From Tilletiopsis washingtonensis (Eukaryota; Basidiomycota; Exobasidiomycetes; Entylomatales), in NCBI RefSeq assembly GCF_003144115.1, contig NW_020312005.1:740391-804390 (forward strand): 64,000 nt of DNA. The letters are read 5' to 3'. The translations under genes and the position numbers were made by a program. Every line of letters begins with the position of its first letter. Within the stretch, counting starts at the first letter, position 1. Under the pieces are notes generated by a model. That model did not search any database. It was not told where the DNA came from and was given only the letters and a program-made list of their open reading frames with translations. Below are positions 19,460 through 27,103 of the stretch, piece by piece.

Positions 19460-21033
19460 ATGGCCTCCGTCGACGTCGCCGTGCCCGCCGCGCCCTCGTC
19501 GCCCGCGCCCTGGGCTGCGCTCTCCTTCGACGACTTCCTCACCTTCCCTGCGCCCTCGCCGGCCCCGACACCGGCGGCGCTGCCGTCTGCGCCGCCTGCT
19601 GCTGCCGCTGCTGCCGCCGCCGCACCGGCCCCCGCGCCGTCGCCGCGCCGCAGCGCCGCCGTGGCGCCCAGCTCGGCGGCCACCGTGCAGGTCGCCGGCA
19701 CGCCGCCGGGCGCCACGGGCCCGCCGCCGCCGCCCGGCTCTGCGCCCGAGGTGCTCTTCGTGAGTGGTGCCGCTGCCTGGGCGCTGCTGGACCATCGCAC
19801 TGACTCGCACACCCTCGCGCAGCGCTACTATCTCGCCGCCGAGCTGCGCCGCATCGGCTCGTCGGCCGACGACCACATCATCGAGAAGTACGTGGCACAG
19901 CACTACTCGTCGATCAGCAAGAAGGCCGCCGCGCCCGTCGCATCGTCGTCGTCGACGGCTTCCGCGGCGCACGCACCCGTCGCCCAGCCCACGCTCAACT
20001 ACGAGCCCTACCGCCGCGCGCCGTCGCCGCCCGCGCCCTCGTTCGCCCACGCCCAGGCGTTCCGCGATGCGACGCCGCCGTCGCCCGAGGCGTTCCTCGA
20101 CCCGCACTCCCTCGTGCTGCCGCCGCCCGCGCTCGCGACGCTGCCGCAGCAGAGCTCGACGGTCGGCGTGCACGAGCCCTTCACCGTGACGCGCGCGCCC
20201 ATCGTGCCCTCGTCGAACGCGTCCGGCAGCTACAGCAAGAGCCGCCGCGCCGCCGACGCAATGTCCGAGGACTCGTCCGACGGCGGCCAGTCGGAAGACG
20301 ACGACGAGGACGACAAGGCCTCGTTTGCGCACCTCGGCTCGAACACCGGCGGCCGCGGCACGTTGAGCGCCGCGGCGATGCTGCGCCCCAGCCCCGAAGA
20401 GTACCGCAAGCTCAGCTCCAAGGAAAAGCGTCAGCTGCGCAACAAGATCAGCGCCCGCAACTTCCGCACGCGCAGGAAGGGTGAGTCGTGCCTCGAGCCC
20501 GTCCGCGTCTGTCCAGCGGCTGTTGTGCCGAGCTGCTGTCCAAACTTCGAGCTGCACGCCGCCGTTCCGGACGGGTCTCTTTCCGTCACCATACTGACTC
20601 TGCGCTCATTGCAGAGCATATCACTGCGCTCGAGTCTGAGCTCTCCGACCGCGACTCGATCATCGCCGGCCTGCGCGCGCAGCTGTCGCAGCTGAGCGTC
20701 GCCAACGCGTCGCTGACCGAGGAGGTGCGCACGCTCAAGCGCACCCAGCTCTCGGCCACAGACGTGAGCCGCATTCTCGAGGCGCTGCAGAAGAGCACCG
20801 GCGTGGCCCTGCCGGCCGGCGCGGCGCCAGCGTCGGACGATCAGGCCATGTTCGCCTCGTCGTCGAACCCGGCCAGCCGGCCGAGCACGCCCACCAGCCC
20901 GCGCCCCGGCCTGCGCCGCAACGAGAGCTCGCTGCTCAACACGCGCAAGGACGTCGGTCCGGCGGCGGCCTCCAAGAGCTTCTGGGGCGGCCGCAGCGCC
21001 GCGCAGGGCAGCGCGCTCGTCGCCGCCAGCTGA
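19460..21033 (+). CDS. bZIP transcription factor
   Basis: Nuclear DNA-binding protein. Exons 19460-20480 and 20615-21033 give 479 aa. The bZIP basic region EEYRKLSSKEKRQLRNKISARNFRTRRK ends exon 1, with the N-x2-SARNF-R signature at NKISARNFR. The split codon G|AG continues into EHITALESELSDRD, and the leucine-zipper heptads run through about LRAQLSQL...LTEEVRTLK in exon 2. The DNA-binding domain is thus interrupted by the 134-nt intron exactly at the basic region/zipper border. The N-terminal half is Ala/Pro/Ser-rich; an acidic patch (SEDSSDGGQSEDDDEDDK) precedes the basic region. The C-terminal tail is Ser/Pro/Arg-rich. I cannot assign it to a named regulator. Confidence 0.92.
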
Positions 21034-22187: not shown

Positions 22188-24041
22188 TCAGAAGCGTGGC
22201 AGCACGATCCGTCCGCCGTGGTCCTGCATCCACTTCGCCAGGGCAGCGCTGACCGGCACCTGACAGCACAGCCGGCTGCTGCCCAGCCGTCCGATGGCAT
22301 ACTCGAGCATGTCGAGCTCCGCATCGCTCGGCACGGCAGCCGCGCCAAGGACCTCGTCTGGCGGCGCTGCATCCAGGGCGAAGCGGTCGCGCGCCGAAGT
22401 GGCATCCTGTGCGCCCGTCGGTGCGGCGATGTAGGCGTGACATGTGGCACACTCGCCTATCAGGCATGGGTCAGCAGCTGCAGAACGGCTGGCCGGGCTC
22501 AAAGACTCACAGACACCTCCGCACGTCGCCTCGATGCTCGGGAGCCCATGGCGCTTGGCGACATCCTTCAACGTCTCGCCGGCCACAGCCGACACGGCAA
22601 AGGACTCGCCCTCCCACGAGACAAAGTGCAGCTGCAGCTGGTCCTTGCCGGACCCAGACGCTGACTCGACGTCTGCGGCAGCCTGCGGCGTGACAGCGGA
22701 ACCCGCCGGCACTTGGGACGCGGCGCTGTCCAATGGCGCCGGCGCAACGCGTGCTCGTGGTGCGAAAGACGCAGTCTGCACTCCTCCACCGCCCCACTCG
22801 TCGCGCTTGTCGTACGTCTCCTGGTCGCTGAGGCCAAGTCGTCCGCGCCAGCGGCTCCAGTGCACCAGGCGCTCGCGCCGATCCTGCACATCGTGGAAGC
22901 TCGTGGCAGGGGCGAGCGCGGAGCGCAGGAGCAGCGGCGAGTCGAATCTGCGCAGGTTGCCGTACCAGTCGCCGTGCGGCTGAACGATGGCATTGGCTGC
23001 CCACTGCGCGGCATCTCTCAGCACGTGTGCAGCGGACTCCGCTCTGGTGCAGCCACTCACCTTGTGACCACCTACGTGGCTGATGGCCCAGACCCTCACG
23101 CGCTTCGTAGCTCCGCCCTCCACGCGCACCTGCTCACGCTGCGCAACGATGTCGCCGATCAGGCTCTCGATCACCTCTGCGCCGGCCACACCGCATCGAC
23201 AGTCGCGCGCGCCGTGTGCACACACGAAGATGTCGGCCGCATCATCGCGCCGCTGCTTGGCGGTCTGGAGGCGCGAGGCAGCGAATGCATCCTCGATGCG
23301 CTGAGGCAGAGGCTGGCTGTCTAGCGAGTCTAGCGAGAGCGGCGGCAGCACAGCAATTCTGCCGGCGCGGTACAGCCGCAGCTGATAGAGCTCCTGCTCT
23401 GCTCTGGGTGGCGCTCGCGAGAAGCGGCTCGCGGTCGGGTCCCAGGCACGCAGCGGCGGGTCGACCATCCCGGCATCGGCCGTCGCCACGTCGTCGTGCT
23501 CGCCTGGCAAGGGCGCAGGCCCGATGAAGTGCGCCAGTGAGAGCAGACAGCCAGCCAGACTCCCGCCGGCGCGGCAGCGTGACTCGAGCTCGGCGTAGAG
23601 CGGCGAGGCTGCCGCCAGATGCGAGGGCCACTGGTCTGGCGCGCGAGGCTGCAGGGGCACGACGACGAGATGTGTGGTGTGCGCCGGAGCAGAGCCAGCG
23701 AGAGGAGCGGCATCGTACGGCGCCAGCGGCACAGTGGCGCCTTCAGGGCCCAGCGCCGGAGCGCAGTCGACGTGAGGCGGAACGAAAGCGTTTGTGTGCG
23801 CCTGTCGCACCGGCGCCACATGCAGGTGCCGCAGCGCGGCCGGGCCGACGGAGCGGGAGGACGGGCAGGCCTGCGAGAGCAGTGATTGGTGCTTCGCAGC
23901 GCGGCAAGAGGCCCCTGCACGGCTTGCAGTTGTCGTCAAAAAAGGTCGACTGCTGCTGGCGCCGGCATCGTGTGCCATGCGACGGGCAGGACCCGTGCCC
24001 AAGAGGCGCAGCCCTCGCGGCACCGACGGCCCGGCGGACAT
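22188..24041 (-). CDS. Double-ferredoxin protein: Apd1-type sucrase/ferredoxin-like domain fused to an adrenodoxin-type [2Fe-2S] domain
   Basis: Probable mitochondrial or cytosolic iron-sulfur electron-transfer protein of about 580 aa. Exons 24041-23061, 23003-22511 and 22456-22188. The N-terminus is Arg/Ser/Ala-rich (possible presequence). The middle domain has the Apd1-family thioredoxin-like ferredoxin signs: FVCAHGARDCRCGVAG (C-x-C pair), then SHVGGHKWAANAIV formed across intron 1 (two ligand-type His), and HGDWYGNLRRF. The C-terminal about 150 residues are a plant/adrenodoxin-type ferredoxin: HFVSWEGESFAVSAVAGETL, then ATCGGVCECATCHAYIA formed across intron 2, and SRLCCQVPVS with the last cluster cysteine. 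Both introns (57 and 54 nt) are multiples of three without stops, so the unspliced frame is also open. An Apd1-like plus adrenodoxin-like fusion is unusual to me. Start chosen at 24041 after the promoter; other Met are possible. Confidence 0.85.
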   Translation of the reverse strand: MSAGPSVPRGLRLLGTGPARRMAHDAGASSSRPFLTTTASRAGASCRAAKHQSLLSQACPSSRSVGPAALRHLHVAPVRQAHTNAFVPPHVDCAPALGPEGATVPLAPYDAAPLAGSAPAHTTHLVVVPLQPRAPDQWPSHLAAASPLYAELESRCRAGGSLAGCLLSLAHFIGPAPLPGEHDDVATADAGMVDPPLRAWDPTASRFSRAPPRAEQELYQLRLYRAGRIAVLPPLSLDSLDSQPLPQRIEDAFAASRLQTAKQRRDDAADIFVCAHGARDCRCGVAGAEVIESLIGDIVAQREQVRVEGGATKRVRVWAISHVGGHKVSGCTRAESAAHVLRDAAQWAANAIVQPHGDWYGNLRRFDSPLLLRSALAPATSFHDVQDRRERLVHWSRWRGRLGLSDQETYDKRDEWGGGGVQTASFAPRARVAPAPLDSAASQVPAGSAVTPQAAADVESASGSGKDQLQLHFVSWEGESFAVSAVAGETLKDVAKRHGLPSIEATCGGVCESLSPASRSAAADPCLIGECATCHAYIAAPTGAQDATSARDRFALDAAPPDEVLGAAAVPSDAELDMLEYAIGRLGSSRLCCQVPVSAALAKWMQDHGGRIVLPRF

Positions 24042-24862: not shown

Positions 24863-27103
24863 ATGCTCGCTCCGCGCCTTCTCGCACGGCCTGCTGCTGC
24901 AGCACGCTCGGCCACTGCCGCCGCCGCTGTGCCCTCGCGCGCCCTGCCGCGCCTCGCGACTGCGTCCGGCACGCGCCGCCACGTCTCCTCGCGCGCCGCA
25001 GCCGCCGCCTCGTCGGCCGCCGCGCCCCGTGCGGCACCTGTGCGCCGCCTCCACGCCTCGGCGCGCCGCTCCAACGCTCAGCCCGTCGACGACGCCGAGG
25101 CGCCCTTTGATCTCGCCAGCGTAGAGCGCGTCGAGGACGAGGCGGACGTGCTCATTGTCGGCGGCGGCCCGGCCGGCCTCAGTGCCGCCATCAAGATCAA
25201 GCAGCTGGCCGAGGCAAAGGGCGAGGAGATCCGCGTGGTGCTGCTCGAGAAGGGCGCCGAAGTGGGTGAGTGGCAGCTTTCCGGCAGGCGCGCGGGCCGC
25301 AGAGGTGCCTGTGGCGACTGCGAGACGGCTAGCGCGCTGCGTCGCCGCCGCAGTGTGGCCAGAGCCCTGCGACTCGGCCTTCGACGCCGCTGAACCCGCC
25401 GCGCTTCTGCTGATCCGCTTGCCATGCAGGCAATCACATTTTGTCCGGCGCAGTGATCCAGACAAACGCGCTCGACGAGCTCTTCCCCGACTGGAAGGAG
25501 ATGGGCGCGCCCCTGCACCAGCCCGCGCTCGAGGACCACATGCGCTTCCTCACCGCCTCGTCGTCGTTCCCCATGCCGCACCCGCCGCAGATGAGCAATA
25601 AGGGCAACTACATCGTCTCGCTCTCGCAGGTCACCGCGTGGCTGGGCGAGCAGGCCGAGGCAGCCGGTGTCGAGATCTATCCTGGTTTCGCTGGCGCGGA
25701 CATTGTCTGGCAGACCGACGCCGACGGCAAGAAGACGGGCGTGCGCGGCGTGCGCACCAACGACATCGGACTCGACAAGAACTTCCAGCCCAAGGACACG
25801 TTCGAGCCGGGCATGGAGTTCCACGCGCCGATCACGCTTTTCGCCGAGGGCGCGCACGGCTCGCTCTCGCAGAAGGTGATCAAGGAGCTGGGCCTGCGCG
25901 AGGCGGTCGGGGCAGACCCGCAGACGTATGGCCTCGGCATCAAGGAGGTGTGGAAGGTGGCGCCGGAGAAGCACCAGCCGGGTCTCGTCACGCACACGCT
26001 CGGCTGGCCGCTCGACGCCAAGACATACGGCGGCAGCTGGTGCTACCACATGGCTGACGGACTCGTGTCCATCGGCCTTGTCGTGGGCCTCGACTACAAG
26101 AACCCGTATCTCTCGCCATTCCGCGAGTTCCAGCGCATGAAACACCACCCGCTCTTCGCGAATTTGCTTGAGGGTGGCACGTGCGAGGCGTACGGCGCCC
26201 GCGCGCTGAATGAGGGCGGGTACCAGTCAATCCCCAAGCTGCACTTCCCGGGTGGCGCCTTGCTCGGCTGCTCCGCTGGCTTCCTGAACGTGCCCAAGAT
26301 CAAGGGCACGCACAACGCCATGAAGAGCGGCATGCTCGCGGCCGAGAGCACGGTCGAGGCATTTCGCAAGCGCAGCGAGGCCGGCTCCGAGGATCTGCTC
26401 GACATTGAGGACTACCGGACGAAGCTGGACGCCTCTTACGTCATGAAGGAGCTCAAGGAGGTCCGCAACCTCCGCCCATCCTTCCACAACCCGCTCGGCC
26501 TGTGGGGCGGCATCGCCTACTCGGGCCTCGACTCGCTGATCCTCAAGGGCCGCACGCCCTGGACCTTCCACCACCCATGCGAGGACCGCGATGCGACGCT
26601 GCCAGCATCGCAGTGCACTCCGATCGACTACCCCAAGCCCGACGGCAAGCTCTCGTTCGACATCCTCACCTCCGTGTCGCGGACAGGCACGAACCATGCC
26701 GAGAACCAGCCCGTGCACCTGCACGTGAAGGGCGGCGACTACGAGGGGCACACCAAGACGAACGTCGGCGAGTACGCCGGTCTGCTGGGCCGCGCCTGCC
26801 CTGCTGCAGTGTACGAGTACGTCGATGCCGAGGGCGGCAAGGAACACGCGTTCGGCAAGCGGTTCGAGATCTCGAGGTAAGGGCGAAAGACGTGCTCGTG
26901 CGACACGCCTGGCGCTGACGACAAGTTGCCTCCTGCAGTCAGAACTGCATCCACTGCAAGACGTGCAGCATCAAGGTCCCGGACGCCAGCATCGAGTGGC
27001 GCGTGCCCGAGGGCGGCGGCGGACCAAAGGTGAGCAAAAAGCACGCCCGCGCCGGCAAGGCTCTTCTCACAACCACATGCTTCCGCAGTATTCCCTGTCT
27101 TGA
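24863..27103 (+). CDS. Electron-transfer flavoprotein-ubiquinone oxidoreductase, mitochondrial
   Basis: Inner-membrane FAD and [4Fe-4S] enzyme that passes electrons from ETF (fatty-acid and amino-acid dehydrogenases) to ubiquinone; orthologue of human ETFDH and yeast CIR2. Exons 24863-25265, 25430-26876, 26939-27029 and 27089-27103 give 651 aa. The first about 75 residues are an Ala/Arg/Ser presequence ([10 protein letters not shown]). The FAD-binding motif [16 protein letters not shown] follows, then [29 protein letters not shown] and SGMLAAE, all hallmarks of the family. The cluster ligands are [10 protein letters not shown] near the end of exon 2 and [13 protein letters not shown] at the exon 3 start. 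The protein ends GGPKYSLS. The last coding exon is only 15 nt. Confidence 0.96.

What the first reader, a model, noticed from the sequence alone, without database searches (positions are those of the whole stretch)
22188..24041. Two different [2Fe-2S] ferredoxin folds fused in one protein
The middle domain has Apd1-family marks (C-x-C in HGARDCRCG, HVGGHK, HGDWYG). The C-terminal 150 residues carry an adrenodoxin-type C-x5-C-x2-C...C set. Known Apd1-type proteins, as far as I recall, end after the thioredoxin-like ferredoxin. A built-in second cluster could make a self-contained electron relay. This is the best candidate in the window for an undescribed arrangement.
Basis: partly seen in the sequence, partly recalled or inferred. 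Interest (0 to 1): 0.75.

Follow-up and report, generated by a model that had tools for sequence, protein, structure and literature searches.

The report
Mitochondrial two-cluster ferredoxin fusion in fungi
This fungal gene encodes one protein holding two different iron-sulfur electron carriers; the arrangement is old and common in fungi, but in smut-fungus relatives the second carrier is replaced by lipoyl synthase, which hints at what the whole family is for.

Summary
The minus-strand gene at 22188-24041, with introns of 57 and 54 nt, encodes a 580-aa protein: presequence-like N terminus, Apd1/Aim32-type domain (PF06999), C-terminal adrenodoxin-type ferredoxin. A model of the near-identical public protein shows both folds, joined by a disordered linker. 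One correction: by homology with Aim32 the cluster ligands are the outer cysteines of CX8C plus HX3H, not C-x-C.

The window is Tilletiopsis washingtonensis. The fusion is not unusual: 99 of 129 homologues collected carry both domains, from Basidiomycota to Mortierella and chytrids. I found no paper describing it in the open library searched.

The stronger lead lies outside the window. In 10 of 10 named Ustilaginomycetes homologues the ferredoxin is gone and a lipoyl synthase sits in its place, a single swap on the tree. Tilletiopsis has a separate lipoyl synthase gene and a separate Yah1, so this looks like a second mitochondrial ferredoxin.

Best reading: an internal relay from adrenodoxin-type cluster to bis-histidinyl cluster in the mitochondrial matrix, plausibly serving lipoate synthesis. 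The relay rests on anatomy. The lipoate link is gene-fusion inference, with real counter-evidence.

The parts
23061..24041 (-). Exon 1 (residues 1-327): presequence-like N terminus (about residues 1-90), N-terminal half of the Suc_Fer-like domain, CX8C motif and HVGGHK
   Evidence: public model P0001 starts at residue 22 (23978)
23004..23060 (-). Intron 1, 57 nt, GTGAGT...CGCAG, in frame, interrupts HVGGHK|WAANAI
   Evidence: absent from P0001; read through in the environmental ORF P0002
22511..23003 (-). Exon 2 (residues 328 to first base of 492): end of the Suc_Fer-like domain, linker, start of the ferredoxin up to and past its first cysteine
22457..22510 (-). Intron 2, 54 nt, GTGAGT...GATAG, interrupts the ferredoxin cluster loop
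   Evidence: absent from P0001; read through in P0002
22188..22456 (-). Exon 3 (residues 492-580 and stop): last three cluster cysteines and C terminus of the ferredoxin
22914..23702 (-). Suc_Fer-like (PF06999) domain, residues 114-357, intron 1 included in the span
   Evidence: E 5.8e-23, 82.4 bits against a cut-off of 34.9
22839..23246 (-). Thioredoxin-like ferredoxin fold, residues about 266-382 (P0001 230-346), intron 1 included in the span
23193..23222 (-). CX8C: C274 and C283, inferred ligands of one iron
   Evidence: C in 99/99 ferredoxin-fused, 19/19 LIAS-fused and 11/11 other homologues at both positions
23064..23078 (-). HX3H (HVGGH): H322 and H326, inferred ligands of the other iron
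   Evidence: first His 98/99, 19/19, 11/11; second His 99/99, 19/19, 11/11
22650..22781 (-). Disordered Ala/Ser/Pro-rich linker, residues about 402-445
   Evidence: P0001 366-409 has pLDDT below 50
22191..22649 (-). Adrenodoxin-type ferredoxin domain, residues 446-580 (C488, C494, C497, C556), intron 2 included in the span

Best explanation
The gene encodes a mitochondrial (matrix) two-cluster electron relay. It is an Apd1/Aim32-type thioredoxin-like ferredoxin (TLF) with an inferred 2Cys-2His [2Fe-2S] cluster, carrying a second, adrenodoxin-type [2Fe-2S] ferredoxin on a flexible C-terminal tether. Inferred flow: NADPH to ferredoxin reductase (Arh1/FDXR) to the C-terminal ferredoxin, then to the bis-histidinyl cluster, then to a client. 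Shown here: reading frame and intron positions, both folds in a predicted model, conserved ligand sets, the fusion in distant fungi, and a separate Yah1. Inferred: cluster occupancy, matrix location, direction of flow. For the client, the best single candidate is the lipoyl synthase step, because in Ustilaginomycetes the same domain is fused to a lipoyl synthase where the ferredoxin sits in their relatives. I put the relay at about 0.6 and the lipoate client at about 0.3.
For: Both ligand sets are almost invariant in the fusions: CX8C 99/99, HX3H 98/99 and 99/99, ferredoxin cysteines 97, 96, 96 and 87 of 99 (the 12 without the last have a gap there). The order TLF then ferredoxin holds in 99 of 99. 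Two confident domains with a disordered linker; both fold types found in the PDB. The helix-3 acidic positions important in FDX1 are acidic in 92/99 and 86/99 (PMC12855868, passages). A standalone Yah1 exists in the genome and groups with yeast Yah1 and S. pombe Etp1 (100/98), apart from the fusion ferredoxins. Lipoyl synthase: 19 of 129 homologues, the TLF ligands intact in 19 of 19; one swap on a 30-row tree, 99/99. FDX1 is needed for lipoylation in human cells (PMC10470009, abstract).
Against: No experiment. Yeast delta-aim32 is reported to fail on respiratory medium at 37 C, anaerobically, and after loss of mitochondrial DNA (PMC8482512, passages), which does not look like an essential lipoylation factor. 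The Apd1 cluster potential as I recall it (about -164 mV, not from a call) is higher than FDX1's -240 mV, so the TLF cluster would be a poorer reductant for a radical-SAM enzyme. Linkers of 18 of 19 LIAS fusions carry a presequence-like R-x-[YF]-A-[ST] motif, so the two halves may be cut apart after import. In FDX1 the two acidic positions tolerate alanine and mutants keep activity in vitro, so their conservation is weak evidence. Gene fusion can reflect shared targeting only. No targeting predictor was run.
Confidence: 0.5

Rival explanations
1. Thiol/disulfide quality control: the protein does what yeast Aim32 is reported to do, keeping mitochondrial protein cysteines in order, with the attached ferredoxin as its private electron source.
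For: Aim32 binds Erv1 and import components, and its loss raises aberrant disulfides (PMC8482512, passages of abstract and text). Same ligand motif, and the TLF fold in the model.
Against: Does not explain the lipoyl synthase swap. The yeast data concern a protein without the ferredoxin domain.
Confidence: 0.3
2. A precursor that is cut: the fusion is only a way to import two independent ferredoxins together, as I recall for S. pombe Etp1, and there is no internal relay.
For: Long disordered linker. 18 of 19 LIAS fusions keep a presequence-like R-x-[YF]-A-[ST] motif in their linker (the exception, P0056, is a scrambled sequence).
Against: The Tilletiopsis linker itself has no R-x-[YF]. The order of domains is the same in 99 of 99 fusions.
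Confidence: 0.2
3. The lipoyl synthase fusion is a gene-model artefact: two neighbouring genes merged with the ferredoxin exon skipped, so it carries no functional message.
For: Merged models occur in this family: Malassezia P0011 and P0029 run into a mitochondrial SSB-like sequence, and P0053 is a chimera. No Ustilaginomycetes DNA or RNA could be fetched.
Against: 10 of 10 named Ustilaginomycetes, from three orders (for one species of each), agree. Unnamed ORFs of source 'lgn' show the same join (P0033, P0035, P0038, P0041, P0046, P0055). Such collections can read through introns: P0002 (source jgi) plainly does and P0059 (jgi, lgn) appears to, so an uninterrupted join there suggests contiguous coding DNA or one transcript; the gene callers used are not known to me. 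Among the best 120 rows of a lipoyl-synthase-only search no named Ustilaginomycetes has a separate copy.
Confidence: 0.12

Closest known systems
Aim32 / Apd1 of S. cerevisiae (bis-histidinyl thioredoxin-like ferredoxins, PF06999)
   Same: CX8C and HX3H ligand motif, TLF fold, a conserved C-terminal tryptophan (W343 of P0001, invariant in 51 aligned rows; its match to the Aim32 tryptophan is my reading)
   Different: This protein goes on for about 200 further residues with a linker and an adrenodoxin-type ferredoxin
Mitochondrial adrenodoxin-type ferredoxins (Yah1, FDX1, FDX2)
   Different: Tethered to a TLF domain; longer loop before helix 3; the genome has a separate Yah1 that groups elsewhere
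S. pombe Etp1 (2wlb is its ferredoxin part)
   Different: Its N-terminal partner is Cox15 as I recall (the one review passage seen, PMC7140478, names Arh1 instead), not a TLF. Etp1's ferredoxin groups with Yah1; this one is additional to Yah1
Suc_Fer-like-lipoyl synthase fusions of Ustilaginomycetes (e.g. P0036, P0043, P0032)
   Same: Presequence-like N terminus and TLF domain with all ligands
   Different: Lipoyl synthase (PF16881+PF04055) in place of the ferredoxin

Membership tests
Apd1/Aim32 thioredoxin-like ferredoxins | PF06999 above curated cut-off | tested here: met
   82.4 bits against 34.9
Apd1/Aim32 thioredoxin-like ferredoxins | CX8C and HX3H ligand motif | tested here: met
   C274/C283, H322/H326; counts; motif definition from PMC8482512 and PMC11138216 passages
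Apd1/Aim32 thioredoxin-like ferredoxins | Thioredoxin-like ferredoxin fold | tested here: met
Apd1/Aim32 thioredoxin-like ferredoxins | Bis-histidinyl [2Fe-2S] cluster by spectroscopy | not testable with these tools
   needs purified protein
Apd1/Aim32 thioredoxin-like ferredoxins | TLF domain is the C-terminal one (as in the yeast prototypes) | tested here: not met
   a second domain follows at 446-580; it is an extended variant of the family
Adrenodoxin-type ferredoxins | C-x5-C-x2-C...C and fold | tested here: met
Adrenodoxin-type ferredoxins | PF00111 hit on the spliced protein | tested here: not met
   none at E up to 1; the unspliced exon reaches 21.4 bits against a cut-off of 21; 30 of 129 homologues carry PF00111 with PF06999 in the precomputed column
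Adrenodoxin-type ferredoxins | Acidic helix-3 residues (docking face in FDX1) | tested here: met
   first position D here; D 87, E 5, gap 7 of 99. Second position E here; E 73, D 13, A 5, V 1, gap 7 of 99
Lipoate-pathway electron donor (FDX1-like) | Supports lipoyl synthase turnover or lipoylation | not testable with these tools
   gene-fusion inference only
Lipoyl synthase (database name of Malassezia homologues) | LIAS_N and Radical_SAM domains | tested here: not met
   absent from this protein; Malassezia homologues P0010, P0011, P0016, P0029, P0034 and P0050 carry the name without those domains
Mitochondrial matrix protein | Cleavable presequence | tested here: inconclusive
   first 86 residues: 10 R, 1 K, 1 D, 0 E; residues 1-61 of P0001 disordered in the model; no predictor run

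The most novel reading that the evidence does not exclude
Fungi have a dedicated, ancient lipoate-synthesis electron donor that is separate from Yah1: an Aim32-type TLF fused to its own ferredoxin. In Ustilaginomycetes it was wired directly onto lipoyl synthase. This would give a client to Aim32-type proteins, whose function is disputed, and a second solution to the division of labour that animals made with FDX1 and FDX2.
Probability: 0.27. Interest if true: 0.8.

Novelty: new variant of a known kind. Interest (0 to 1): 0.5.

Why it matters
Thioredoxin-like ferredoxins, the class of Apd1 and Aim32, have no agreed function (PMC11138216, passages). A fusion found in distant fungal phyla suggests that an adrenodoxin-type ferredoxin is their natural partner. 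The single swap of that ferredoxin for lipoyl synthase in Ustilaginomycetes names a testable client. If right, it joins an unexplained protein family to lipoate synthesis, where the fungal electron donor has been assumed to be Yah1 (my understanding, from no call).

Tried and rejected
Rarity of the fusion: rejected. C-x-C as the ligand pair: rejected in favour of CX8C. This fusion as the only mitochondrial ferredoxin: considered when PF00111 found just two places. The other place reads as a complex I 75-kDa subunit (my reading), and a Yah1 query then found a separate Yah1, so the idea was dropped. The fusion ferredoxin as a recent copy of Yah1: not supported, since Yah1 of this genome groups with yeast Yah1 and Etp1 (100/98); whether all fusion ferredoxins form one clade is unresolved (39% of bootstrap trees). 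Lipoyl synthase next to this gene in the window's genome: no, it lies on contig C24. Bacterial neighbourhoods: of the 64 loci of the one genome-contig scan, 63 matched the ferredoxin part and one (L075) the TLF part; I translated 8 of the 64, all for the ferredoxin tree, and looked at no neighbouring genes, so it says nothing on lipA neighbourhoods. In the VIA list most rows are of the ferredoxin domain; the N-terminal half of the Suc_Fer-like domain was not folded alone, so its fold is untested. I recognised no named ascomycete among the rows (word-limited searches), so how far Ascomycota lack the fusion was not measured.

Full report
WHAT IS THERE. The window is part of contig C8 of the genome held as G000 (C8:740391-804390). 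A public protein of Tilletiopsis washingtonensis (Exobasidiomycetes) on a contig of 804390 bases is the same gene product (P0001, 97% identity because of gene-model differences). On the minus strand, 24041-22188 is one open frame even unspliced. Two introns of 57 and 54 nt with GT-AG ends keep the frame; both lie inside conserved motifs, and their removal gives 580 aa. The public model omits both as well. It starts 21 residues later and leaves out 15 further residues (23504-23548), at a stretch that the homologue P0003 appears to keep. The environmental ORF P0002 carries both introns as translated sequence, so that source is not intron-aware.

HOW COMMON. Two searches gave 70 and 68 proteins, 129 different ones. 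With my own profiles (built from 13 of these, so circular for those 13) 99 of 129 carry the ferredoxin at E below 1e-10, 19 carry a lipoyl synthase motif (CEEARCPN), and 11 carry neither. Of the 11, I read P0053, P0059 and P0066; they look chimeric, frame-shifted or cut short; the other eight were not read. The precomputed Pfam column lists PF06999 with PF00111 for 30 of the 129 (my count). Ferredoxin fusions occur in Ustilaginomycotina outside Ustilaginomycetes, Rhizoctonia and Tulasnella, Microbotryomycetes, Mortierella and kin, Dimargaritales (for Dispira), Calcarisporiella and many chytrids (species names; groups not looked up are from recall). Each search scored only about 8000 candidates sharing most words, so absences mean little.

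THE LIPOYL SYNTHASE SWAP. Ten named Ustilaginomycetes (Violaceomyces, Sporisorium x3, Pseudozyma flocculosa, Thecaphora, Ustilago x3, Melanopsichium; class checked for three of the ten) have Suc_Fer-like plus LIAS_N plus Radical_SAM in the precomputed column, and none of the ten has the ferredoxin. P0036 passes all three Pfam cut-offs. On a tree of the Suc_Fer-like domain of 30 of the 129 rows (those I had named) the LIAS group is one side of a branch, 99/99, among ferredoxin-fused Ustilaginomycotina: one change. The two chytrid rows are long branches, did not form one side of any branch as outgroup, and the order of the groups around the swap is open. The motif CTRGCRFC is present in 19 of 19, VRSSY in 17 of 19 (the two lacking it, P0042 and P0056, have a scrambled C-terminal part). 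A lipoyl-synthase-only search, limited to 201-640 aa, listed the best 120 of 7992. It shows separate copies in Malassezia, Tilletia, Tilletiaria, Ceraceosorus, Jaminaea and others, but none named for the ten species. Three unnamed close sequences (P0130-P0132, 85-89%) begin inside the linker or inside the enzyme. So the fusion is probably the only lipoyl synthase of those fungi. This is inferred, since no DNA of them could be fetched.

THE WINDOW'S OWN GENOME. One PF06999 gene was found, a separate lipoyl synthase gene on C24 and a separate Yah1 on C12 with its own presequence-like start. The genome search ignores introns and may miss genes. In a 39-row ferredoxin tree this Yah1 joins yeast Yah1 and S. 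pombe Etp1 (100/98); the fusion ferredoxins lie outside that group, their single origin unresolved. So Tilletiopsis seems to have two mitochondrial-type ferredoxins, one of them tethered.

HOW IT PROBABLY WORKS. I favour electron entry at the adrenodoxin-type domain, whose helix-3 acidic residues are kept as in FDX1 (PMC12855868, passages), then transfer to the bis-histidinyl cluster and on to a client. A potential near -164 mV for Apd1 (recalled, no call) against -240 mV for FDX1 makes that direction downhill. It also makes the TLF cluster a weak donor for radical-SAM chemistry, a real objection to the lipoate client. If the client is lipoyl synthase, the help may concern repair of its sacrificed cluster or a thiol step rather than SAM cleavage; this is speculation. 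FDX1's need for lipoylation in human cells is reported (PMC10470009, abstract and part of the introduction). Yeast delta-aim32 phenotypes fit redox quality control better than a lipoylation block.

CAVEATS. No RNA evidence; no spectroscopy; no targeting prediction. Linkers of 18 of 19 LIAS fusions carry a presequence-like motif, so the two halves may part after import; the Tilletiopsis linker has none of that form. Merged gene models occur in this family (Malassezia P0011, P0029). I argue under the rivals why that is unlikely for ten species and several unnamed ORFs, but it is not excluded.

NOVELTY. Both domains are known kinds, and the two-domain architecture is already visible in database annotation. 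In the open library I found no description of the TLF-ferredoxin fusion or of the TLF-lipoyl synthase fusion (listings, with passages of the few papers opened). The JACS 2019 paper on Apd1 and Aim32 was not read. I call it a new variant of a known kind.

Noticed in passing
window about 24863-26880, + strand: Divergent neighbour is the electron-transfer-flavoprotein:ubiquinone oxidoreductase gene (PF21162, PF05187 on its 3' exon; ATG at 24863), about 820 bp from the start codon of this gene; another mitochondrial electron carrier, possibly by chance.
   Followed up: partly
P0077-P0082 and P0088 (chytrids; not in the window): A third architecture: Suc_Fer-like plus ferredoxin plus FAM210A/B-like domain (PF06916) in seven proteins from several chytrid genera (rescanned for P0077 alone), perhaps a membrane-anchored version.
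   Followed up: no
P0010, P0011, P0016, P0029, P0034, P0050 (Malassezia): Named 'lipoyl synthase' in databases though they lack lipoyl synthase domains; probably a name carried over from the Ustilaginomycetes fusions.
   Followed up: partly
P0011 and P0029 (Malassezia): Models run on into a single-strand-binding protein domain (PF00436), apparently a neighbouring gene merged by the annotation.
   Followed up: no
P0056 (listed under chicory, Cichorium endivia): A Suc_Fer-like/lipoyl synthase fusion filed under a plant; looks like smut-fungus contamination of the plant assembly.
   Followed up: no
window 20420-20479, + strand: A basic stretch (KEKRQLRNKISARNFRTRRK) that reads like a bZIP basic region (recalled motif); Pfam gave no hit on the two unspliced frames scanned.
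   Followed up: partly
window 23504-23548, - strand: The public model P0001 removes 15 residues (LLSLAHFIGPAPLPG) as a 45-nt intron with an unusual donor (GTCTGC); the homologue P0003 keeps a similar stretch, so the removal may be wrong.
   Followed up: partly
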